Source: Lujinxingiaceae bacterium
GTDB lineage: Bacteria; Myxococcota_A; Bradymonadia; Bradymonadales; Bradymonadaceae
DNA: 64,000 nucleotides
Direction of reading: 5' to 3'
NCBI GenBank assembly: GCA_013697635.1
Contig: JACCWM010000058.1
Coordinates: 62,001-126,000, forward strand
The notes below the pieces were generated by a model. The model was not told the DNA's origin, did no database searches, and saw only the letters and a program-made list of their open reading frames with translations. Positions 27,510-64,000 of the stretch are shown piece by piece; position 1 is the stretch's first letter, and every line of letters starts with the position of its first letter. Both the position numbers and the translations under genes were made by a program.

Positions 27510-27759
27510 GTCGTTTCTTGTTACATCCTCGCCGCACCACCGGGCTTTTCGCGGATCCGGCATGTTGTGACGACATCGCCACTCAAACCCAAGGAGATTC
27601 GTCATCCATCAGGAAGCCAGATGCAGGCTCTGTTCGCGGCCAGCCGCGCCAGCCGCGCAGCTGCGCTTTCATTAATCGAACCTGTGTGTTAGCCTTGTTT
27701 GCAGAACTAGCCCCCACCGCGTTTTTTTAGTGTTTACCGTGAATGTTTGGAGCACTCGC

Positions 27760-29787
27760 ATGCACTGCAGGCCTCAGCTCGTCTGGATCTTTGCGCTCAC
27801 CTTCGCCCTGACGGCCTGCTCTGACGACACGACCTCTGGTAAACTCGGCGCCGATGGCTGCCCCGTTGGTCAGACTCGCTCCGAGAGCGGACAATGCGTC
27901 AACGCGTCCGGCACCAACAATGGGACCGACGACGCCAACCATGGCGCGAACAATGGCGCGAACAATGGCGCCAACAATGGCTCGAGTAACAACGGCACGC
28001 ACAACAACACCAACAACAACAACGATGCGAATAACGGCGCGAATAACGACGCCCACAGCGATGCCCACGGCGATGCCAATCACGACGTCGACGCCAGCGC
28101 GGCGGACACCGCAACGCCCTGTGTAAATCTGGAATGCCAGCAGGTCACCTGCGCGGTGGGCCTTGGAACCACGCGTGTTTCGGGCAAGGTGACGATCCCA
28201 TCGGGCGCGCTGCCGTTGCCCGGCGTGCACGTCTACGTACCCAATGGCCCGCTTTCACCGCTGATCGATGGAGCGAGCTGCGATCGCTGCGATGCGATGA
28301 TCTCCGGGCTGCCGCTGGTGCGCACCACGACGGACGTGCGCGGTGAGTTCGTCTTGGAAAACGTTCCAGTAGGCCAAGATATCCCGCTCGTGATTCAGGT
28401 CGGCAAGTGGCGCCGTCAGATTGTGCTGCCCAACGTCGAGGCCTGCACCGACAATGCGATCACGGACCACGCCATGACGCGGCTTCCTCGAAATCAACAG
28501 GAAGGCGATTTGCCCAAGATCGCGCTGACCACCGGCAGCTCGGACGCGCTCGAGTGCCTGCTGCACAAGGTCGGCATCGACCACGCCGAGTTCACCCCCG
28601 AGGGCGGCGGCGGGCGCGTCAACCTCTACGCCGGCCTCAGCGGAGGCACGCGCTACGATGCCACGCTCAACGAGGGCGCCTTATACACCAAATCAGGATT
28701 GCTGTGGAGCGCTCCTGACGGTCTCGACAACCTCAAAAAGTACGACATCGTCTTGCTCGCCTGTGAGGGCGGCGGTCACAAACCGGCCAACAAGCCGGAG
28801 GAGGCTCGCCAGACGCTCAAGGAGTTCACCGAGCTTGGGGGTCGCGTCTTTCTCACCCATTGGCACAGCATCTGGCTGCAATACGGTCCTGAGGACTTCC
28901 GATCGGTGGCGACCTGGGGCGGAAGCGGCGGCGGAGGTTCTCCCGGCCACGTGGACACGACCTTCGCCAAAGGCATGACGCTCGCCGATTGGCTCTTCGA
29001 GAACGAAGGCTCCCAGGTCCATGGACAAATCGTGCTTGCCGGAACCCAGAAGACGCTCGGTGGCATCAACCACGATCTCGCCCAGCGCTGGATCTCGCTC
29101 AACCCCCTCGATGATCGTTCGATCCAGTATTTCAGCTTCAATACGCCCGTAGGCGCGCCCGACACCGAGCAGTGCGGACGCGTGGTTTTCAGTGACATTC
29201 ACGTCTCCTCGGGCGACTCGAGCGGCAAGGCCTTTCCTACCGGTTGCACCTCGCCCGGGCTGACCCCTCAGCAAAAGGCGCTGGTCTTTATGCTCTTCGA
29301 CCTGTCCTCCTGCATCGAGCCCGATGCCCAGTGCCAGCCCACCACCTGTGTGGCCCAGCAGGCCACCTGCGGCACGATCCCCGACGGCTGCGGCGGCGAA
29401 AGCCTCGACTGCGGTAGCCCCTGCTGCATCAAGCAGGCCGCGGTCTGCAATGCTGATTCGACTTGCTGCGACAGTCTGGTCTGCACGGACGGAACCTGCC
29501 AGGCGCCGCGCTGCCGCGTGGTCGAAGAGTCCTGTAATGCCAATTCGCTTTGCTGCGACAATCTGGTCTGCACCAATGGCACATGCGCGCCCCCCCCCTG
29601 TCGCACACAGGGCGCCATATGCAACGCCAACGCGCTTTGTTGCAATAATCTGGTTTGTACGAACGGCTCCTGCCAGCCGCCGCCCTGCAAGGTGCTCGGT
29701 TCAACCTGTGAAGCCAACTCAAATTGCTGCTCGAATATCTGCGCGCGCCCGGCTGGCCAAACCAGCGGCACTTGCATCCAGGGTTGA
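27760..29787 (+). CDS. Lipoprotein with ThuA/glutamine-amidotransferase-like domain and C-terminal knottin-like modules
   Basis: ATG 27760 has GGAG 7 bases upstream and gives 675 residues; an in-frame GTG at 27730 is less likely. The lipobox is ALTAC, followed by a ~70-residue Asn/Ala/Gly/Asp linker. A carboxypeptidase-regulatory-like beta domain follows (VSGKVTIPSGALPLPGVHVYV ... TDVRGEFVLENVPVG), then a Rossmann-like region (YDIVLLACEGG, LGGRVFLTHWHSIWLQYG) resembling ThuA/class I amidotransferase folds but with no clear Cys-His-Glu triad. The C-terminus has four six-Cys modules of form C-x6-C-x5-CC-x3/4-C-x4/9-C. It is expected on the cell surface. Its modules match those of the two lipoproteins at 57532 and 59553. 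Confidence 0.8.
   Translation: MHCRPQLVWIFALTFALTACSDDTTSGKLGADGCPVGQTRSESGQCVNASGTNNGTDDANHGANNGANNGANNGSSNNGTHNNTNNNNDANNGANNDAHSDAHGDANHDVDASAADTATPCVNLECQQVTCAVGLGTTRVSGKVTIPSGALPLPGVHVYVPNGPLSPLIDGASCDRCDAMISGLPLVRTTTDVRGEFVLENVPVGQDIPLVIQVGKWRRQIVLPNVEACTDNAITDHAMTRLPRNQQEGDLPKIALTTGSSDALECLLHKVGIDHAEFTPEGGGGRVNLYAGLSGGTRYDATLNEGALYTKSGLLWSAPDGLDNLKKYDIVLLACEGGGHKPANKPEEARQTLKEFTELGGRVFLTHWHSIWLQYGPEDFRSVATWGGSGGGGSPGHVDTTFAKGMTLADWLFENEGSQVHGQIVLAGTQKTLGGINHDLAQRWISLNPLDDRSIQYFSFNTPVGAPDTEQCGRVVFSDIHVSSGDSSGKAFPTGCTSPGLTPQQKALVFMLFDLSSCIEPDAQCQPTTCVAQQATCGTIPDGCGGESLDCGSPCCIKQAAVCNADSTCCDSLVCTDGTCQAPRCRVVEESCNANSLCCDNLVCTNGTCAPPPCRTQGAICNANALCCNNLVCTNGSCQPPPCKVLGSTCEANSNCCSNICARPAGQTSGTCIQG
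27934..27981 (+). repeat. 12-base tandem repeat in lipoprotein linker
   Basis: Four head-to-tail units of GCGAACAATGGC-type sequence (27934-27945 divergent, 27946-27957 and 27958-27969 identical, 27970-27981 one change) encode repeated A-N-N/H-G. Unit length is a multiple of three, so gain or loss of copies changes only linker length. Confidence 0.8.
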
Positions 29788-51060: not shown

Positions 51061-51104
51061 ACCGAAAACGCCTGCACCGAAAACGCCTGCACCGAAAACG
51101 CCTA
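51061..51104. repeat. 15-base tandem repeat at the 3' end of the HEAT-repeat gene
   Basis: Three units of ACCGAAAACGCCTGC (51061-51075, 51076-51090, 51091-51104; the last one base short, with its 13-base start identical) run up to and include the TAG stop of the HEAT gene on the minus strand. The stop codon is part of the last, diverged unit, so readthrough or loss of the stop would add repeated G-V-F-G-A in one frame. Confidence 0.85.
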
Positions 51105-53897
51105 GGGTTCCTCGGCCTCGTCGAGTGACTCGATCAAGGATTCGATATCTTCTCCGGCATCGCGAATATTGATGCGATTTCGCACGGTGCCGATCGTCTC
51201 GAGCAGCTGGTCGCGAAGCTCGGCTGGGGCCTTGGTCGACCAAGCCTGCAACAAGTTGACGACTTGCTCGTCGGCATAAAAGCTCAGAGACCGAAGCGCG
51301 ATCTGACGGCGCTCAATCTCGGGCTCGTTTTGCAAGACATCCATGAGCACGTCGATTCCAACCTCGCTGCGTCGATGACCGAGGGCCATCAGCCCGTTGC
51401 GGTAGAGCACCTCTTGTTGTTCATCGGTCAAATCACCGATGCGATTCAAATCTTCGTTGACCAGGGCCAGCAACAGCGCCTCTCCGGTGGGCGACCGGTC
51501 CAGGCCAAGCAGATCGACGAGCTGGCGGCGCGCGGCATAGGGCGTCGTCTCGCTTCGCAGAAGGGTATCGACCAGGCCAGGATCGAGCGCACGATCGGCG
51601 CGTCTGAGCGCGCGCATGGCAATGATCGCGCGCTGGGTGCGAATCTGTGTTGCGACCACTTCAGCCAGATAAGCCGCCGCCTCCGGGCGCTCACGCAGCG
51701 CAAGCATGCCGTAGGCATTGTGCAGACCCTGACTCCAGGTCTCGACGCGCGCATAATCGATAACCGCCGCAACGCTTTGCTCGGCATCATCGCGCACAGC
51801 GAGGCCGCTGACCGCGGCGATTCGCACATCGGGTGAGGAATCCTGCAGTGCGCTCTCGAGCGCAAGGCGCGCTTCCTCATCAGGATAGTGAGCGAGGGCT
51901 TCGGCGGCGGTGCGCCGAACCAGGGGATCGCGACGACCGGCAAGCAACTCGGCCAAGAAAGGCATCGCGCCGGGGCTGCGGAAATAACCCAGCGAACGAA
52001 TCGCCGCGAGCATGTGGCCGCGCGAGGGAGCGCTTTGGACGATGTCGATGAGCAACTGGCTGCCCTCGATCTGGCGGTCCTCGCGCACGCTGATGCGCCG
52101 GCCCATGGTATCGAGCACCATCAAGGCATCGTAGGTCGTCGCCGGGTCGCTCGAGGCGTGTGCTCTGGCCAGCACGCTGGGCACGATCGCATCGCCGCCG
52201 TTTGCGACTGCGCGCACGCGCTCACGGCGGGTGAAGTCGCCTCCTTTGCCAAGATCGGCGACCAGCGTCGCGATCTGATCGGGAGTCCCGATGCGCCCAA
52301 CCAGGCGAATCGTGTCGACATGCTTGCGCTCGGAGATCTCGTCTGCCTTCAGTATCGCGAGCAGGCCGCCAACGGAGGCTGCCCCGTGAACGGCCATCGT
52401 GCGCATGATCGCGCGATACTCCGGGGCATCGGTCGAGACGACCTCGAAGGCCGCGACCAAAACGGCGACCGCACTCTCCGTTGGCAACTGGCCCAGCAAT
52501 GGAATGACGCGCACGCGCCGCTCCGCGGGGCCATCGATGATGGCCTGGCGTATCGTGGCCAATGCTTCGTCGGGAATCAAACTCATGAGCATGCCCAGCC
52601 GCTCGCGTTTGCGCGCATCAGGCTCTGAGGCAATGCGCTCGAGCAGATTCTGAGCGCTCTCGCCCGCGCTCGGCGCATCGAGCACCGAGTGTGGCGTGAT
52701 CTCGGCAATCGCGATTGCCTGACGTGTATCGGGCAAACCGCGCTGCGGGCGTACGCTGCCTGGGCGGCCATCGAGGAGCATCACCGTCATGCAGCGCGTT
52801 TTCACCGGTTCGGGCAAGGACACGTAAAAGCCGCCAGTCTCAATCAAGTCACTGAATTCAGCAGCGGGCAGATCGACCACGTAGCGCGATAAGTCCGAGA
52901 ACGAGACCAATATTTGGGTTGGTCGGCCATGCTCTCGAGACTGGCGGGCGCTGCCGCCGTGGCCGGGGAAAATCCTAAAGCCTTGCAGCGCCACAAGCTC
53001 GTTGATGCTGGCCGTGACGTACTCGCCGCGGCCGAGGCCCTGGCCACCGGCGACCCAGACCGTGGACAAATCGAGATCCCCAAGCGTCAGCGGGCGAATG
53101 GCCACGCTCGTGCCAGCTGCGCCCCGGAAATCACTGGTCGCCCAGGCCCAGCTGTAGATGCTCGAGAGAAAGGGCGCCTGAAAGCGCGTTTCGGGCAATC
53201 TGGCGGTGAGTCTGGTCGCATTCTCGAGCAAGACCTCAACCTTTGCTTGAGGTGTGAAGCGCTGGCGCTCGACGTCGTAAACCTCGAGCGCGCGATCCTC
53301 GCCATCGGCCAGACCGCAAAACTGAACCGTGGTTGCAGCGTCGGCACGAATGAGCTGTGGCGGCTTGGCCTGGCGGTCAATGTGCAGGCGAGCGCCGCCA
53401 TCGAGCTCGGTGAATTCGCCCTTGGCAAGCAAGGTGCAGGTCCAGCCACTGCGCGATGCCGTGGGACGCAAAAGCCAGGCGACTTGCAAGGTCGCCATGT
53501 CAGGCGGCGCGCCTTCGTCAACGGAGGATTTGGCCTCGAACAAAAGCAGGTGCGCGTCGCGGCCGATGGAGTCGACGCTGATGCGGTAGTTGTAGTAGCG
53601 CATGCCCGCATAGGGCGGCAGGGTGGCAAGGCACAAGCGTGTCGCGGCAACGTCGTCGCTTACCGCTCGAAGAGTCCACGCATCGCGCTGGCCGTCGTCG
53701 GATCTTGAAAGACTGACGGTCACCGGTGCTCGTCCGCGCGCAATGGTGACGAGCTGCTCGTAGCGCACCGTGTCGCCATGATCGGTGCCAGGCGCGTAGG
53801 CAGTCTCCTGGGAATGCGCCGTGGCGAAGCCAAGCGAGAAAACCAGCGCGGCTTCAATGGCAATCAACCGACGCGCCATGCGTGAGGGCTGGCTCAT
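51102..53897 (-). CDS. Exported HEAT-repeat protein
   Basis: ATG 53897 overlaps the Nudix stop as ATGA and gives 931 residues with a signal peptide ([17 protein letters not shown]). Residues ~30-430 form beta-rich domains of unknown type, with several Cys ([25 protein letters not shown]) and an apparent discoidin-like segment ([11 protein letters not shown]). From ~430 the chain is helical HEAT/PBS-lyase-like repeats, for example [27 protein letters not shown] and [20 protein letters not shown]. The C-terminus is acidic ([13 protein letters not shown]). It is probably a periplasmic or surface scaffold; the partner is unknown. Confidence 0.8.
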
Positions 53898-54349
53898 GCG
53901 CACGCTCCTCGATTGGCGAGCATCTCGGCGGGCGATGGTCGCTGCCCGCTGGCTCTAAACCTCAAGTAGTGCTTCAGAATTGTGGCGTGGTCAAAGCACA
54001 GCACGGCTGGAAGCGCGTCGAGCGCAAAGAGTTCGGCGCGCAGCGCGTCGTCGGCGCCCTGAGGCTGGCCCTCGGCCTCGGCCACAAATACCGTCGACAT
54101 CGTGTGTTGGCGGGGATCGCGACTTGGATCCGAATAAACATAAAGTAAGTCTTTAAGTTTGATGTCGAGACCGGTCTCCTCTTTGGCCTCTCGAACGGCC
54201 GCCTCTTCAACGGGCTCACCGTAGTCGACGAAGCCGCCTGGAATGGCCCAGCCGCGTGGCTCGTTTTTTCGCTCGATGAGTACGATGCACCCGGCCACTT
54301 CGATGATGACATCGACTGTGGGCGCGGGGTTTCGGTAGGTCTTGCTCAA
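53894..54349 (-). CDS. Nudix hydrolase
   Basis: The start is uncertain; I prefer TTG 54349, which has GGAG 7 bases upstream and yields 151 residues; the frame is open to another TTG at 54367. The Nudix box matches perfectly: G-x5-E-x7-REAKEETGL, within [15 protein letters not shown] and onward. The N-terminal block has [22 protein letters not shown]. Nudix enzymes hydrolyse nucleoside diphosphates linked to another group; the specific substrate (ADP-ribose, dNTP, other) is not evident. It is the first gene of a two-gene leftward unit with the HEAT protein. Confidence 0.9.
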
Positions 54350-57531: not shown

Positions 57532-59367
57532 TTACTGGATGATTTTGCACGAGCCGTTTTGGCAGTTGAGGCCAAGACAGCAATCGGCCGTGGTGGTGCA
57601 GGAATCGCCGGGCCCGCCACACTCGCTGGTCTGGTTGCCGCAGGTGTTCGTGCCAGCGTTGCAGTAGCCCGAGCAGCAGTCGGTGCCGGCTGTGCATGTC
57701 GAGCCGTTTGCGACGCAGGCACGAGCGCACATGCCGTTTCTGCAGATCTCGCTGCAGCACTGGCCATTGCTCGTGCAGCTGTCGCCAATGGGTTTGCACT
57801 GGGTCTGATCGGCGCACTTATTGGTGGTCGGATCGCAGTGGCTCGAGCAGCACTCGGCACTGGTGGCACAGGTCTCGGCGTTGGGCTTGCAGGAAGCGCA
57901 CTGGCTGTTTTGCGGATTGCAGTAGTTCGTGCAGCACTCGTTGTGCGAGCCGCAGCCGGTGCCGGTAGCCTTGCAGGGCTCGGGGCCGCACTGGTTGAGG
58001 CTGTTGCAGTTGCCAAAGCAGCACTCGCCATTGATTGTGCAGCCGGCGCCGTTGGACTTGCAGGCCTCCTTGCCGCAGATCTTGTCCGAGTTGCAATTGC
58101 CGCCGCAGCAATCGCCGTTGGCTGCACAAGCGGCGCCCTCGGCGGTGCAAGTCGTCGTCGAGCAGACCAGGTTTCCTGCCGCATTGGGAACGCACAGCCC
58201 CGAGCAGCACTGCTCGCTTATCGCACAGGTGTCGCCGGTGCCGATGCACTCGGCATGCCCTTCGCCGTGGCAGCGCCCGATGCCGAGCACCGTGTACTGG
58301 CAGGCTTCCGGGCCGCCGCAGCAGTCGTGCGTGCCGCCAAAGCGCTCGTCACAGATCTCGCCGGCCGGCTTGGGACCCTGGATTCTGCCGCAGCGGCCGA
58401 TGTCGCGGCCCGGATAGTACTCGCACTTGGCCGGGGCGTGATGGCTGCACATGCCAGTGCTCGCACAACACTCTTCGTCGCGGTGGCAGAGCTCGGCGCG
58501 GGCGCGACAGCCTCCCAAGAACTGGCAGCTCTTGAAGCCGCCACCATCGTCAAAGCAGGCGTACGAGCAGCAATCGGTGGCTTGGCTGCAAACTTCACCG
58601 ACGACCATACAGCTCTGTGTGGGGTTGCTGGCGCCCGAGAGGTTGGCGCAAAAGCCATCATCGCACTGGGTGTTGCAACAATCGCTTCCCACCGTGCAGA
58701 CATCACCCGTGACGCGACAGCTTCCACCGCGCCCGCAGCGCTTGCCGTCTCCAAAGTCGCGACAGTTCTGGGTGCAGCACTCGCCGTCGCCGCCGCAGAT
58801 CTCACCGCTGGCCTTGCAGCTCGAGGTGCTCGTGCACGAGCCGCCGGTGCACTGGTTGCTGCAACAATCGGAGTTGGCGTTGCAGCTATCGCCGCGCGAG
58901 GCGCAGACCGTGCTCGTGTCGCACTTGCCGCCGACGCAGCTATGCGAGCAGCAATCGATCGCGGCATCGCAGCTCTCGGCTTCGAGCGCGCACAAACCGG
59001 AGCCCTCGAGGCACTGGCCGTCGGCGCAGCGACCCGAACAACACGTCGAGCCGCTCGTGCAAGCCTGGCCTCCCGGATCGCAGGTGCCAAGTGTGACCGA
59101 GCACTTGTTGTTGGCGTTGCACATCAACTGGGCGCAGCACTCACTGCTGTTCTCGCAGCTGCCGCCACCGACGACGCAGCTGCCGACATTGTTGGTGTTG
59201 TTGTTTGTGGTGTTGTTCGTGTTGTTTGAGCTGGAATCTTCGTCCAGATTAAAGCCGTCGGGATGATCGCCCTGGGCCACTTCGTCGTCGCAGCCACAGC
59301 CTGCAAATAGACTGAAAACAAAGACCGCCAAGAGCAGGCGCAATAACTGAAGGGGCGTTCGGAACAT
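57532..59367 (-). CDS. Lipoprotein with 16 knottin-like six-cysteine modules (copy A)
   Basis: From ATG 59367 (GAGG upstream) the protein has 611 residues and about 100 cysteines. The signal ends LFAGC; a short Asn/Thr linker follows. The rest is an array of 16 modules with pattern C-x6-C-x5-CC-x3/5-C-x4/10-C, the spacing of inhibitor-cystine-knot peptides (for example CGGPGDSC ... DCC ... C ... C at the end). Between modules 8 and 9 an island of ~50 residues with different Cys spacing (near 58268-58430, containing PGRDIGRC and GGTHDCC) interrupts the array. Expected to be lipid-anchored and disulfide-rich on the cell surface. Function unknown; Dickkopf-N-like families share the pattern. Confidence 0.8.
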   Translation of the reverse strand: MFRTPLQLLRLLLAVFVFSLFAGCGCDDEVAQGDHPDGFNLDEDSSSNNTNNTTNNNTNNVGSCVVGGGSCENSSECCAQLMCNANNKCSVTLGTCDPGGQACTSGSTCCSGRCADGQCLEGSGLCALEAESCDAAIDCCSHSCVGGKCDTSTVCASRGDSCNANSDCCSNQCTGGSCTSTSSCKASGEICGGDGECCTQNCRDFGDGKRCGRGGSCRVTGDVCTVGSDCCNTQCDDGFCANLSGASNPTQSCMVVGEVCSQATDCCSYACFDDGGGFKSCQFLGGCRARAELCHRDEECCASTGMCSHHAPAKCEYYPGRDIGRCGRIQGPKPAGEICDERFGGTHDCCGGPEACQYTVLGIGRCHGEGHAECIGTGDTCAISEQCCSGLCVPNAAGNLVCSTTTCTAEGAACAANGDCCGGNCNSDKICGKEACKSNGAGCTINGECCFGNCNSLNQCGPEPCKATGTGCGSHNECCTNYCNPQNSQCASCKPNAETCATSAECCSSHCDPTTNKCADQTQCKPIGDSCTSNGQCCSEICRNGMCARACVANGSTCTAGTDCCSGYCNAGTNTCGNQTSECGGPGDSCTTTADCCLGLNCQNGSCKIIQ

Positions 59368-59494
59368 GGGGTGCCTCGTTGTCGTGGTACTATCGAACCA
59401 AACTTTCAATAAAGGAGCAGCCGGAATACTTGACGCCCACTCTAGCATAGCGATCAACCGCAAAACAACTGGTCTGGTTGAGCCAAGAAATAAG

Positions 59495-59527
59495 CCGGCC
59501 CCCGAGAGCGATGCTCTCGGGGGCCGG
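59495..59527 (-). terminator. Terminator of the second Cys-rich lipoprotein gene
   Basis: CCGGCCCCCGAGAGC (59495-59509) and GCTCTCGGGGGCCGG (59513-59527) are perfect 15-base arms with a GAT loop. On the minus strand TTATTTCTT follows, as expected for the gene ending at 59553. The remaining gap to 59367 holds only the promoter region of the downstream copy, in which I see no clear -35/-10. Confidence 0.85.
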
Positions 59528-59552
59528 ATACAGTGACGATCAGCTCAGCGCC

Positions 59553-61532
59553 TCATGGAATGAAGCGACAGCTTCCATTCTGACAGTTCAAGCCCAAACA
59601 GCAATCGGCGGTGGTAGAGCAGCTGTCGCCGGGGCCTCCACAGGTGCTCGTCTCATTGCCGCAGGTCAAGGTTCCCGGGTTGCAATAGCCCGAGCAACAA
59701 TCGGTGCTCGCTGTGCAGCTCGTGCCGTTGGCCACGCAGGCCCTCGAGCAGGCGCTGTCTTTGCAAATGCCGCTACAGCACTGGCCGTTGTTCGTGCAGC
59801 TGCCGCCGATAGCAAGGCACTGAGGCAGGTCGTCGCACTTGCCGCTTGCGTTGCAGTAGTTCGAGCAGCACTCCGAGCCTGTCGTGCAGTCCTGGGTGTT
59901 CGACTTACAGTTGGCGCACTTGTTCGTGCCCGGATCGCAGTAGTTGTTGCAGCACGAGGCGTGGCTGGAGCAGTTCGAACCGGTGGGCACACAGGGCTCG
60001 GAGCCGCACTCGCGAAGGCTGTTGCAGCGGTTCGAGCAGCACTGGCTGCCGCTGGTGCAGTCGTCGCCATCGGGCTTGCAGGCGTTGGCGCCGCAGATGC
60101 CTTCGGTGTTGCACATGTTGCCACAACAGTCGCCGTTGTTCGTGCATCCACCGCCGTTCTCGGTGCACATCGTCGTCGAGCACACCAGCTCGCCGGCGGC
60201 GTTCGGTGCGCAAAGACCGGAGCAGCACTGATCGCTGAAGGCACAGGTGTCGCCGTTGCCGATGCACTGGTCGTGGCCTTTGCCGTAGCAGCGCTCGATG
60301 CCGAGCACGGTCGCCTGGCAGGCATCTGTGGTGCCCGGCGTGCTGCCACAGCAGTCGTGGGTGCCGCCAAAGCGCGGGTCACACACCTCGCCGGCGGCCT
60401 TGGGGCCGTTGATCGTGGTGCAGCGGCCCACGTCGCGGCCGGGAAACAACGAGCAGGTGCCCGCAGCGTGGACGCCATTACACGATCCGGCGTTGTTGCA
60501 GCAGTCCGTATCGTTTTTGCACAGCTCGCCGTAGGGGCGACAGCCACCAAGAAACTGGCAGCTCTTAAAGCCCGAGCTGTCGGCAAAGCAGGAGTACGAG
60601 CAGCAGTCGCCGGCGGCGCTGCAGGCCTCACCGACCATGCGACAGCTCACCACGCCCAGGCCCTCGAGCTTTGCGCAGTAGCCGTCGTCGCACTGGGTGT
60701 TACAGCAATCCGTGCTCGTGGTGCAGACCTCGCCAGAGGTGCGGCAAAGCCCGCCCGATGCGCAGCGCAGCCCGTCACCAAAGTCCTTGCAGGTGCGCGA
60801 GCAGCAAGAGGCGCCCGTGGTGCACGACTCGCCAGCGTTGTGGCAGGTCGGGCCGGCTACACACTTGCCAGCGTCGCAGTTGTTGCTGCAGCAGTCGGTG
60901 TCGCCGGTGCAGTCATTGCCGCGCGAGGTGCAGGTCGTTGTTCCGTCACCGCACTTGCCGTCGCTGCAGCTCAGCGAACAGCAGTCGGCTGCGGCCGCGC
61001 AGTCGTTGCCCTCGACCTTGCAGCCGCCCGTGCCCGCCAGGCACATGCCATCGGCGCCACAGCGCCCCGAGCAGCACGTCGAGCCGCTCGTACATACCTC
61101 GCCCTGGGGATCGCAGACGCCCAAGGTGACCGAGCACTTGCCGTTGGCATTGCACATCAGATCGCCGCAACACTCGGTGCTGTCCGCACACGCTCCGCCG
61201 CCTTGTGCGCAGCCGTTGTTGTTGCCGGTATCACCGTTTTGGTTGTTGCCATCGGGCGTGGCATCGCCCGATGGCACATCGGTGCCCGTCGTGGCGTCAA
61301 CGCTCGAGTCGGGGTTGTCCCCGATGTCCGTCAGCGCGTCCGGGTCAGTGTTGTTGGTGTTGTTGGAGTTGTTGGAGTTGTTGGTGTTGTTGGAGTTGTT
61401 GGAGTTGTTGGAGTTGTTGGAGTTGTTCTCACCGGGACGGGTGACGTCCTCGTCGCAGCCGCAGCCGGCGAGCATGCCGAAGATCAAGAGAATGAGGGCG
61501 AGGCGCAGGATGTGTAGCGGTTTCGAAATCAT
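59553..61532 (-). CDS. Lipoprotein with 16 knottin-like six-cysteine modules (copy B)
   Basis: The 659-residue protein is a close paralogue of copy A. The signal ends GMLAGC and is followed by a ~70-residue linker with N-N-S/N-N-T repeats, much longer than in copy A. The same 16 modules and the same non-module island (near 60285-60455, PGRDVGRC and GGTHDCC) follow in the same order, and modules correspond one to one (the last differs at only a few residues). The pair must derive from one tandem gene duplication rather than from independent module amplification. Location is inferred to be the outer surface, with oxidised disulfides. Ligand or activity unknown. Confidence 0.8.
   Translation of the reverse strand: MISKPLHILRLALILLIFGMLAGCGCDEDVTRPGENNSNNSNNSNNSNNTNNSNNSNNTNNTDPDALTDIGDNPDSSVDATTGTDVPSGDATPDGNNQNGDTGNNNGCAQGGGACADSTECCGDLMCNANGKCSVTLGVCDPQGEVCTSGSTCCSGRCGADGMCLAGTGGCKVEGNDCAAAADCCSLSCSDGKCGDGTTTCTSRGNDCTGDTDCCSNNCDAGKCVAGPTCHNAGESCTTGASCCSRTCKDFGDGLRCASGGLCRTSGEVCTTSTDCCNTQCDDGYCAKLEGLGVVSCRMVGEACSAAGDCCSYSCFADSSGFKSCQFLGGCRPYGELCKNDTDCCNNAGSCNGVHAAGTCSLFPGRDVGRCTTINGPKAAGEVCDPRFGGTHDCCGSTPGTTDACQATVLGIERCYGKGHDQCIGNGDTCAFSDQCCSGLCAPNAAGELVCSTTMCTENGGGCTNNGDCCGNMCNTEGICGANACKPDGDDCTSGSQCCSNRCNSLRECGSEPCVPTGSNCSSHASCCNNYCDPGTNKCANCKSNTQDCTTGSECCSNYCNASGKCDDLPQCLAIGGSCTNNGQCCSGICKDSACSRACVANGTSCTASTDCCSGYCNPGTLTCGNETSTCGGPGDSCSTTADCCLGLNCQNGSCRFIP
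61349..61427 (-). repeat. 9-base tandem repeat encoding N-N-S/T linker
   Basis: About nine head-to-tail copies of TTGTTGGAG or TTGTTGGTG (plus-strand reading) encode alternating N-N-S and N-N-T behind the lipobox of copy B. The near identity of units, codon for codon, shows expansion by slippage; copy number can change without breaking the frame. Confidence 0.85.
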
Positions 61533-61686: not shown

Positions 61687-62325
61687 TCAGGCCGGCTCGG
61701 TGGCCTCGGCCGCGGCTGCGGCGGCCGGCTGGCGCCAGGTGACGCCCAGCGTCTCGAGTGAGAAGTTTGCGCAGTCGAACTCACTCTTGGGGAAGCGGTG
61801 GCGGCGAACGTCCCAGAGGCGAAAGCCTTTGAACTCAGTCTCGCGCGCGTTGGCCTCGGCGTCGAACTCGTTGGGCCGAAGCGTGACGAGGTCGAACTGC
61901 ACGGTATCAACCTTGGGATCGTCGAGACCGTGGGCGATCAACATGTAGACGTCGGGGCGGTCGATGCGGAAGTGCTCGAGCACGAATCCGGGCCCGGCCG
62001 TCATGTGCACCTTGCCACTGTCGACGGCCTGCAAAAAGGAGGTGACATCGGCAAAGCGCTGACGAAACGGTCCGAGTTCGTGGCCCATCTCATGGAAGAG
62101 GCCGTGCATGTTGTTTTCGTAAACCTGCTGGAGCAGCTTGAACAACTTCCAGGGGTTGGTCTCGGCCGAGATCAGTTGCTCGACGCCTCGGGTTTGCTTG
62201 GTCGCCTCTCGCTGCACCTGGTGGGCTCGAAAACAGCACTTCTTGTACTTCTTGCCGCTTTGGCACGGGCAAGGCTCGTTGCGACCGACATCATCGGGTG
62301 TATCGCTCGAAACGGGGGTGCTCAT
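61687..62325 (-). CDS. SEC-C motif protein
   Basis: ATG 62325 has GGAG 7 bases upstream and gives 212 residues. The SEC-C zinc motif lies near the N-terminus: GRNEPCPCQSGKKYKKCC, i.e. C-x-C-x8-C-C. In SecA this module binds zinc and SecB, but it also occurs in many small proteins of unknown role. The rest is helical to mixed, with FVLEHFRIDRPDVYMLIAHGLDD and a C-terminal Ala-rich tail. The motif at the N-terminus rather than the C-terminus is less common. It follows the TPR gene by 46 bases on the same strand. Confidence 0.85.
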   Translation of the reverse strand: MSTPVSSDTPDDVGRNEPCPCQSGKKYKKCCFRAHQVQREATKQTRGVEQLISAETNPWKLFKLLQQVYENNMHGLFHEMGHELGPFRQRFADVTSFLQAVDSGKVHMTAGPGFVLEHFRIDRPDVYMLIAHGLDDPKVDTVQFDLVTLRPNEFDAEANARETEFKGFRLWDVRRHRFPKSEFDCANFSLETLGVTWRQPAAAAAAEATEPA

Positions 62326-62371
62326 GTTCAACTCCATCGAAGTGGGGTGCAATCACTGGCGTCGGTGAAAC

Positions 62372-63082
62372 TTAGCGCCGACGAAACTGCGCATTTTGTC
62401 GCTGGGCGGGCGGCTTGTCCAGATGGAACTGGTACCACATCAGGTTCCAGCTGCGCATCTTCATTTTCTTGTTGTTTTTCAGGGCGTTGAGGTTGGTCTG
62501 GCTCTTGGCGTCCTCGGGCATCGCCTCGAGCGCGCGGTTGAGCACGGCGATCGCCTTGTCGCGATCGCCGGCCTTCCACATGCAATAGGCGTACATGTTC
62601 CAGAGCAGGCTCTCTTTTTTGTTGGCCTTGACAGCTTCATCGAAGACCTTCTCCATCTCGGTGTACTTTTTGCGCTTGTAGTAGAGCGCAGCGAGCATGG
62701 CGCGCGAGACCCAGTTCTTTTTGAAGGAGCGCTTCAAATAGGGCTCGGACTCGTCGAACTTCTGGGTCATGTAGAGAATCGAGCCGATCTGGGCATCGAT
62801 CTGCGAGGCGATGAAAAACTGCCATTTGCCCAGCGGATAGGCCTGCTTCAAGACGGCGATGGCCTGGCTGACGCGCTGTTTGCTGAGCTCGGTCTGGGCC
62901 TGAGCCACGGCGGCCTGCACCAGCTTGAGGATGCGTCGGGCCAAAAAGATGTAGGCTGCAAAAAAGGCGATCAGGCCGGGCAAGATGCCATACCAGATTT
63001 TGAGTTCGCCGCCACCGAGGCCAAAGCCTATCAATAGGGTGACGGCGATGCCGGCTAACGCCGAGATTATTACGTTGTACAT
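62372..63082 (-). CDS. Membrane-anchored TPR protein
   Basis: The 236-residue protein starts with two hydrophobic segments (ISALAGIAVTLLIGFGLGG and WYGILPGLIAFFAAYIFLARRIL) that form a hairpin. From ~65 it is helical with TPR-type repeats: VSQAIAVLKQAYPLGKW, YMTQKFDESEPYLKRSFKKNWVSRAMLAALYYKRKKY and MYAYCMWKAGDRDKAIAVLNRALEAMP. The repeat part should face the cytosol given the arginine/lysine-rich segment after the second helix. The last 30 residues are basic. Likely a scaffold; partner unknown. Confidence 0.75.
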   Translation of the reverse strand: MYNVIISALAGIAVTLLIGFGLGGGELKIWYGILPGLIAFFAAYIFLARRILKLVQAAVAQAQTELSKQRVSQAIAVLKQAYPLGKWQFFIASQIDAQIGSILYMTQKFDESEPYLKRSFKKNWVSRAMLAALYYKRKKYTEMEKVFDEAVKANKKESLLWNMYAYCMWKAGDRDKAIAVLNRALEAMPEDAKSQTNLNALKNNKKMKMRSWNLMWYQFHLDKPPAQRQNAQFRRR

Positions 63083-63134: not shown

Positions 63135-64000
63135 TCAAGGCACCAAAAAATCCTGACACATCTCATTGACCTCAGCGCGAATCGTGTCCAAGGCGGCCTC
63201 GTCGTCGAGCGCGGCCACGGTGCGCGCGAACCAAGAGACGATGCGGCCCATCTCGGCCTCTTTCATGCCACGTGTGGTCACCGCCGCCGTGCCGATTCGA
63301 ATGCCCGAGGGGTCAAACGGCCCACGGGTATCAAAGGGAATGGAGTTCGAGTTGCATACGATGCCGGCGCGCTCCAAAGCCTGGGCGACGGGCTTGCCGC
63401 CGATGCCCTGGGGGGTGAGATCGACGAGCAGCAGGTGGTTCTCGGTGCCGCCCGTCACCAGGCGAAATCCCTGCTCGAGAAAGGCATCGGCCATCGCGCC
63501 CGCGTTGGCAACGATCTGGGCCGCATAGGTCTTGAAGGCGGGCTGCATCGCTTCATGAAAGGCAATGGCGGCCGCGGCCACCTGGTTCATGTGCGGTCCA
63601 CCTTGCAGGGCCGGGAAGACGGCGCGATCGATGTCCTTGGCCAACTCCTTTTTGCACATGATCAGGCCGCCGCGCGGTCCACGAAGCGTCTTGTGCGTGG
63701 TCGTGGTGACCACGTCGGCCACAGGAAAGGGGCTAGGGTGCACGCCGCCGGCGACGAGGCCGGCGATATGGGCGATGTCGGCGACGAGCTTGGCGCCGAC
63801 CTCCTGGGCGATCTCGGCAAAGCGCTCGAAATCGATCAAACGCGGATAGGCCGAGGCCCCGCAGATGATGAAACGCGGCTTGACCTCGCGCGCGAGCCGC
63901 TGGACCTGGGCGAAGTCGATGCGCTCGCTCTCGCGGTCCAGACCGTAGTGATGGGCATCGTAAAAGCGACCCGAAAAGCTCACCTTCCAGCCGTGGGTGA
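63135..64000 (-). CDS. glyA: Serine hydroxymethyltransferase, 5' end beyond window
   Basis: GlyA converts serine and tetrahydrofolate to glycine and methylene-tetrahydrofolate using PLP. The visible 288 codons are the C-terminal two thirds of a ~415-residue enzyme; the frame stays open to the window edge (THGWKVSFSG). The PLP lysine is in TTTHKTLRGPRGG, preceded by ADIAHIAGLVAGG, which holds the cofactor aspartate. The C-terminal block has GTENHLLLVDL, GIVCNSNSIPFD and SGIRIGTAAVTTRGMKEAEM. Nothing in the visible part is abnormal. Confidence 0.97.
   Translation of the reverse strand, partial: THGWKVSFSGRFYDAHHYGLDRESERIDFAQVQRLAREVKPRFIICGASAYPRLIDFERFAEIAQEVGAKLVADIAHIAGLVAGGVHPSPFPVADVVTTTTHKTLRGPRGGLIMCKKELAKDIDRAVFPALQGGPHMNQVAAAAIAFHEAMQPAFKTYAAQIVANAGAMADAFLEQGFRLVTGGTENHLLLVDLTPQGIGGKPVAQALERAGIVCNSNSIPFDTRGPFDPSGIRIGTAAVTTRGMKEAEMGRIVSWFARTVAALDDEAALDTIRAEVNEMCQDFLVP

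What the first reader, a model, noticed from the sequence alone, without database searches (positions are those of the whole stretch)
57532..61532. Twin lipoproteins built from 16 tandem knottin-like modules each
Seen: two adjacent leftward genes encode lipoproteins with about 100 cysteines arranged as 16 modules of C-x6-C-x5-CC-x3/5-C-x4/10-C. Known: this spacing is that of inhibitor-cystine-knot (knottin) peptides, and Dickkopf-N-like domains are similar; arrays of this size on a bacterial lipid anchor are not something I know to be characterised. Inference: a protease-resistant surface array, possibly for adhesion, predation or defence against other cells.
Basis: partly seen in the sequence, partly recalled or inferred. 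Interest (0 to 1): 0.75.

Follow-up and report, generated by a model that had tools for sequence, protein, structure and literature searches.

The report
Surface lipoproteins built from knottin arrays
Two neighbouring bacterial genes encode lipid-anchored proteins made almost entirely of 17 tiny disulfide-knotted domains of the kind best known from spider and cone-snail venoms; the family runs through the whole bacterial phylum, has no entry in the protein-family databases searched, and probably forms tough surface rods or adhesins.

Summary
Across homologues cysteines 1 and 4 are lost together (11 modules against 0.4 expected), as a C1-C4 disulfide requires. The proteins belong to a family found in 74 of 379 genomes sampled across the phylum, with about 11 core modules in fixed order, a C-terminal array of variable length (up to about 37 modules per protein) and a cap module. 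No Pfam or NCBIfam model covers it. The same module also forms a C-terminal tail on three other lipoprotein types, one in this window; 27 of 27 tails checked end exactly three residues after the last cysteine. Function is inferred: most likely a stiff, protease-resistant surface rod or adhesin. The fold is known; the bacterial lipid-anchored array is a new variant.

The parts
59553..61532 (-). Gene 1 (P0001): 659 aa lipoprotein precursor with 17 ICK modules
   Evidence: ORF, lipobox and module parse
61461..61532 (-). P0001 signal peptide and lipobox, LAGC, lipidated Cys24
   Evidence: LAGC after a hydrophobic stretch, by inspection; no dedicated predictor was available
61212..61454 (-). P0001 Asn/Ser/Thr/Asp-rich linker, residues 27-107, partly encoded by a 9-bp tandem repeat (61350-61427)
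   Evidence: similar linkers on other lipoproteins of the genome
59568..61211 (-). P0001 array of 17 six-cysteine modules, residues 108-655
   Evidence: fold
60093..61115 (-). P0001 conserved core, modules 2-11 in fixed order
   Evidence: family-wide profile search
60288..60422 (-).
59835..60080 (-). P0001 variable modules 12-14
   Evidence: lowest conservation between homologues, number differs
59568..59642 (-). P0001 C-terminal cap module 17 (CGGPGDSC..DCCLGLNC....C)
59495..59527 (-). 15-bp G+C-rich hairpin followed by a T-rich stretch, terminator-like, between the two genes
   Evidence: terminator-like sites overall are not above chance there, but this one has by far the longest stem
57532..59367 (-). 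Gene 2 (P0002): 611 aa lipoprotein precursor with 17 ICK modules, from the ATG at 59367
59296..59367 (-). P0002 signal peptide and lipobox, FAGC, lipidated Cys24
   Evidence: by inspection; no dedicated predictor was available
57547..59178 (-). P0002 array of 17 modules
58270..58392 (-). P0002 enlarged module 9
61687..62352 (-). SEC-C motif protein immediately upstream; with the TPR protein (62372-63082) and glyA (63135-63983) it forms a conserved neighbourhood
   Evidence: Pfam; same order in G008 and G017
29425..29784 (+). Four-module knottin tail at the C-terminus of another window lipoprotein (27730-29787, P0003)

Best explanation
Shown by computation: these are lipoprotein precursors whose mature part is a string of 17 ICK-type modules in a conserved order. 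Inferred: they are lipid-anchored in the outer membrane, oxidised outside the cytoplasm (the genome encodes a VKOR-DsbA fusion and further DsbA-like proteins), and stand on the cell surface as stiff, protease-resistant rods on a flexible Asn/Ser/Thr linker. In this reading the ordered core (modules 2-11, including the aromatic-rich module 7 and the enlarged module 9) is the ligand-contacting part, and the expandable modules 12-16 with the cap set reach. The protein would act as a fibrillar adhesin or receptor for contact with other cells or surfaces, in a group that probably contains predators living among secreted proteases. The most certain step is the fold; the least certain is ligand binding.
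For: Lipobox and linker. ICK fold: pLDDT 90 and PDB matches; joint C1/C4 loss. VKOR fused to DsbA in one frame on C79, plus other DsbA-like genes. Conserved order of modules 1-11 across genera. Variable C-terminal module number and, in relatives, near-identical tandem C-terminal modules. Family maintained in 74 of 379 genomes. Precedent: Cys-rich repeats of the myxobacterial receptor TraA were proposed to be a rigid stalk (PMC3325183).
Against: No known ligand-binding domain is present. Surface exposure is not shown; an inner-leaflet, periplasm-facing lipoprotein is possible. The full-length model has low confidence (pTM 0.44), so rod shape is not predicted. Adjacent modules in the window proteins are only 22-24% identical outside cysteine, unlike typical length-varying stalks. 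The gene neighbourhood (glyA, TPR, SEC-C) gives no functional clue.
Confidence: 0.5

Rival explanations
1. Multi-headed protease-inhibitor shield: each knottin loop blocks a protease, protecting the cell from its own or its neighbours' secreted proteases.
For: Many knottins are protease inhibitors; trypsin-inhibitor knottins (SOTI-III, squash inhibitors) are among the structural hits of the full-length model. Many divergent modules in one chain resemble multi-domain inhibitors.
Against: The C1-C2 loop, where squash-type inhibitors carry the reactive site, is not hypervariable compared with the other loops and has a conserved Gly (mean entropy 1.79 against 1.53-1.90). No conserved basic P1-like residue in that loop. 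The ordered core and cap are not needed for such a function.
Confidence: 0.15
2. Passive coat or spacer: a disulfide-armoured layer that shields the outer membrane or spaces other proteins, without a specific ligand.
For: Low aromatic content, no Trp, acidic (pI 4.2-4.5), rich in Gly/Ser/Thr/Asn; large variation in module number.
Against: Ten or eleven modules keep their identity and order across the phylum, with conserved non-Cys residues in modules 7 and 10 and the linkers around 7-9, more than a bulk spacer needs.
Confidence: 0.2
3. Contact-delivered toxin or antimicrobial array: surface-displayed or shed knottins act on prey or competitor membranes or channels.
For: Sequence and fold resemblance to venom ICK peptides; Bradymonadia and other Myxococcota include predators (PMC7460792 and PMC11509652, abstracts).
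Against: Strongly acidic, no cationic or amphipathic modules, lipid-anchored, no conserved cleavage sites between modules, no immunity-like neighbour. The ICK fold is shared by many unrelated functions.
Confidence: 0.08
4. Metal-binding (metallothionein-like) protein with reduced cysteines.
For: 16-18% Cys.
Against: Exported, disulfide-forming enzymes present, strict ICK spacing, pairwise loss of C1 and C4, confident ICK fold.
Confidence: 0.02

Closest known systems
Inhibitor cystine knot (knottin) peptides, e.g. nemertide alpha-1 (6ENA), U3-scytotoxin-Sth1a (5FZV), omega-atracotoxin, conotoxins
   Same: Six-Cys spacing, single-module fold (TM 0.80/0.84 to 6ENA), profile similarity
   Different: Those are mostly single secreted peptides; here 17 or more modules sit in one lipid-anchored bacterial chain, acidic, with ordered non-identical modules. 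No Pfam venom family passes its cut-off for P0001 or P0002.
Dickkopf N-terminal region / colipase fold (PF04706, 5O57)
   Same: Top structural hit of the full-length model; CC-containing Cys-rich modules
   Different: No Pfam match for the window proteins; weak match (E 0.021, below cut-off) in one relative, L061. Bacterial, multi-module, lipid-anchored.
Double-knot toxin DkTx (6CUC)
   Same: Tandem ICK modules in one chain (hit)
   Different: Two modules and secreted, against 17 (up to about 37) and anchored.
Myxobacterial TraA receptor with Cys-rich repeats TIGR04201
   Same: Cys-rich tandem repeats in a surface protein of the group; proposed rigid stalk (PMC3325183)
   Different: TraA repeats belong to another family (22-residue model); the window proteins have no PA14 domain and no TIGR04201 match, although TIGR04201 repeats occur elsewhere in the genome.
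Periscope proteins and fibrillar adhesins
   Same: Surface protein whose repeat number varies and would set projection length (PMC8201768, PMC8286594)
   Different: Repeats in the window proteins are not near-identical, and no terminal adhesin domain is recognised.
Disulfide-directed beta-hairpin (DDH) fold
   Same: The four-Cys modules of relatives (L058, L059 and single modules elsewhere) keep the C2, C3, C5 and C6 equivalents, the pattern expected of DDH
   Different: Structure of the four-Cys modules was not predicted here.

Membership tests
Inhibitor cystine knot fold | Six cysteines in the order C-C-CC-C-C with knottin spacing | tested here: met
   16 of 17 modules canonical in both proteins
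Inhibitor cystine knot fold | Compact fold matching solved ICK structures | tested here: met
   pLDDT 90; Foldseek prob 0.97, TM 0.80/0.84 to 6ENA, E-values not significant at this length; for module 16, others by homology and the repeated secondary-structure pattern
Inhibitor cystine knot fold | C1-C4 disulfide | tested here: met
   Joint loss in 11 modules against 0.4 expected; indirect evidence
Inhibitor cystine knot fold | C2-C5 and C3-C6 disulfides | tested here: inconclusive
Dickkopf_N PF04706 | Match above the Pfam cut-off | tested here: not met
   No match at E <= 1 for P0001/P0002 or any A5 member
Venom ICK Pfam families (Conotoxin_I2, Toxin_12, Toxin_29 etc.) | Match above the Pfam cut-off | tested here: not met
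   Only sub-threshold matches for P0001 and P0002
Myxo_Cys_RPT TIGR04201 (TraA stalk) | Match to the repeat model | tested here: not met
   No NCBIfam match in P0001, P0002 or 13 homologues
Periscope proteins | Near-identical tandem repeats with variable copy number between strains | tested here: inconclusive
   Window modules 22-24% identical to the next one; relatives G017, G020, G002 up to 0.79; strain-level variation not testable here
Bacterial lipoprotein | Signal peptide with lipobox | tested here: met
   LAGC / FAGC by inspection
Bacterial lipoprotein | Outer-membrane, surface-exposed location | not testable with these tools
   needs surface labelling

The most novel reading that the evidence does not exclude
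Members of this phylum (probably Myxococcota) use a knottin module as a general building block of their surface: as ordered recognition rods of 10 to about 37 knots, and as a double-knottin C-terminal tail with a fixed end (mostly C-I/V-x-G/N-COOH) on several unrelated lipoproteins that works as a sorting, maturation or end-protection signal, comparable in role to the type IX secretion C-terminal domain or MYXO-CTERM.
Probability: 0.2. Interest if true: 0.85.

Novelty: new variant of a known kind. Interest (0 to 1): 0.6.

Why it matters
Knottins are studied almost entirely as single secreted peptides of animals, plants and fungi and as drug scaffolds. A phylum-wide bacterial family with up to about 37 ordered knots in one anchored chain, plus relatives whose modules have lost the C1-C4 bridge, gives a natural data set on how the fold tolerates tandem assembly and disulfide loss, a testable class of surface proteins in a group with predatory members, and candidate material for very stable protein rods. 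The C-terminal double-knottin tail could be a new surface-targeting signal.

Tried and rejected
Reading the first TTG as the start of gene 2: rejected, the signal peptide and lipobox start from the internal ATG at 59367. Two automatic counts of C1/C4 loss were spoiled by out-of-register matches and discarded; one search masks intact modules first, and one search uses its list after I removed two out-of-register entries, counted one L060 module as a joint loss and set aside one false single-C1 loss by hand. Single-operon reading: weakened by the hairpin between the genes. Mobile-element or phage origin: no relative of the core in viral contigs, none of P0001 in plasmids. RNA features: no Rfam or tRNA hits in the window. 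Hypervariable inhibitor loop: not seen. Twin genes as a recent duplication: the core tree does not place P0001 and P0002 as sisters with support; the split is unresolved.
Full report
OBSERVATION. The two leftward genes are real. P0001 (59553-61532) and P0002 (57532-59463, most likely starting at the ATG at 59367) each encode a signal peptide with lipobox (LAGC/FAGC), an Asn/Ser/Thr/Asp-rich linker and then nothing but cysteine modules to the C-terminus. This accounts for all 104 cysteines: 17x6 plus Cys24 and Cys26 at the lipobox. Composition-preserving shuffles give 0.10-0.15 modules on average, at most 2.

FOLD. A single canonical module (P0001 module 16) folded with an 83-sequence module alignment gives mean pLDDT 89.7, five models agreeing. 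Foldseek against the PDB returns nemertide alpha-1 (TM 0.80/0.84, rmsd 1.2, prob 0.97), U3-scytotoxin (0.73/0.76, rmsd 0.8), omega-atracotoxin and other ICK peptides; one weak hit at rank 15 is the human peptide LEAP-2. E-values are not significant (best 0.33), as expected at 33 residues. A sequence profile of the module hits 32 distinct PDB sequences at E <= 1, nearly all animal-venom ICK toxins, best 1.1e-4. The full-length model (554 aa, 13-row alignment) has low overall confidence (pLDDT 67, pTM 0.44) and so does not fix inter-module geometry, but it repeats the same strand and short-helix pattern along the chain, with modules 8 and 9 departing from it. Its structural hits are again mostly knottins, with the Dkk4 N-terminal region first, and trypsin-inhibitor knottins, colipase and the double-knot toxin among them.

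DISULFIDE TEST FROM NATURAL VARIATION. Across the homologues, 478 modules keep all six cysteines. After intact modules were masked and out-of-register matches removed by hand, 11 modules lack both C1 and C4, and 5 lack only one of the two; 0.4 joint losses would be expected if the losses were independent. Examples are module 5 of the third paralogue of this genome (KKVAGTICGGDSECASNNC) and module 7 of G017 (ESVIGDPCDEHSDCSSYAC). Two array proteins from another family (L058, L059) consist of 17 and 13 modules that all lack both. This is what a C1-C4 disulfide predicts, and the remaining four-cysteine pattern is that of the disulfide-directed beta-hairpin. The sequences are related, so the Fisher p-value (1.7e-18) overstates the case. 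C2-C5 and C3-C6 have no such independent support.

FAMILY. The same genome has a third array (contig C19, 771 aa, 108 Cys). A profile of the core (modules 2-10) finds matches in 74 of 379 genomes drawn across the phylum, many end to end in other families. Modules 2-11 of P0001 align with those of distant members in the same order, and for P0001 against P0002 and against G010 each of modules 1-11 is most similar to the same-numbered module. Modules 12-14 vary most between homologues, and relatives carry from 11 to about 37 modules by the same parser. In G017, G020 and G002 neighbouring C-terminal modules are up to 0.79 identical outside cysteine, and in G017 and G002, the two scanned, they lie on DNA tandem repeats. 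No Pfam or NCBIfam model matches P0001 or P0002 above its cut-off, and NCBIfam has no hit for any of the 13 aligned members. No relative was found in viral contigs or plasmids.

CONTEXT. The array follows glyA-TPR-SEC-C, an order also present in G008 and G017. A strong hairpin with a T-rich tail separates the two window genes. Adjacent array genes also occur in G020 and G304. The genome encodes a VKOR-DsbA fusion (C79) and further DsbA-like proteins, so disulfides can form outside the cytoplasm. The linker resembles those of several other lipoproteins of the genome. Phylum Myxococcota, perhaps class Bradymonadia, is my inference from genome sizes, linker style and an Archangiaceae MAG among the two named relatives.

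THE MODULE AS A TAIL. Two to four of the same modules end at least seven other lipoproteins of this genome, among them the window gene 27730-29787. They are of three types: DUF7305 proteins, thrombospondin-type-3 plus VWA proteins, and a type with a weak CarboxypepD_reg match (the second type read by eye). A profile of the tail finds it in 19 of the 20 other family members searched. In all 27 tail proteins checked the stop codon comes exactly three residues after the last cysteine. The profile includes those residues but cannot force a stop codon.

FUNCTION (inference). The parts list fits a lipid-anchored, disulfide-armoured surface rod or adhesin whose ordered core makes contacts and whose expandable modules set reach. 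The nearest tested precedent is the myxobacterial receptor TraA, whose unrelated Cys-rich repeats were proposed to be a stalk (PMC3325183). A protease-inhibitor string is possible but the inhibitor loop is not hypervariable. A toxin role has only fold resemblance behind it. Metal binding is unlikely.

VERDICT. The fold is known; the long, ordered, lipid-anchored bacterial array is, as far as the databases and the nine paper searches run here show, undescribed. I rate it a new variant of a known kind.

Noticed in passing
window 27730-29787 (+), tail 29425-29784; also G000 contigs C42, C45, C81, C100, C131; relatives L117-L146: The same knottin module forms a two-to-four-module C-terminal tail on three other lipoprotein types, and in 27 of 27 tails checked the protein ends exactly three residues after the last cysteine.
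   Followed up: partly
L058:7817-9880 and L059:8103-9773 (genomes G042 and G048): Array lipoproteins made of 17 and 13 four-cysteine modules that lack C1 and C4, resembling the disulfide-directed beta-hairpin pattern; both share the same C-terminal domain.
   Followed up: partly
L019:5779-9277 (archaeal MAG DeMMO2_7): Two adjacent Cys-rich proteins with CC-containing modules behind a type-IV-pilin-like N-terminus; weak similarity to the array.
   Followed up: no
window 61350-61427: 9-bp tandem repeat (8.7 copies, 95% matches) encoding the Asn-Asn-Ser linker; in-frame length variation would change the tether length.
   Followed up: no
window 59495-59527: 15-bp G+C-rich hairpin followed by a T-rich stretch between the two array genes; a likely terminator.
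   Followed up: no
G000 contigs C86, C128 and C121: Single open frames with two or three DsbA-like domains in tandem.
   Followed up: no
window 51102-53903 (-): 933 aa HEAT-repeat protein with a weak match to PF25302 (NADase_transloc, F5/8 type C domain) and an apparent signal peptide.
   Followed up: no
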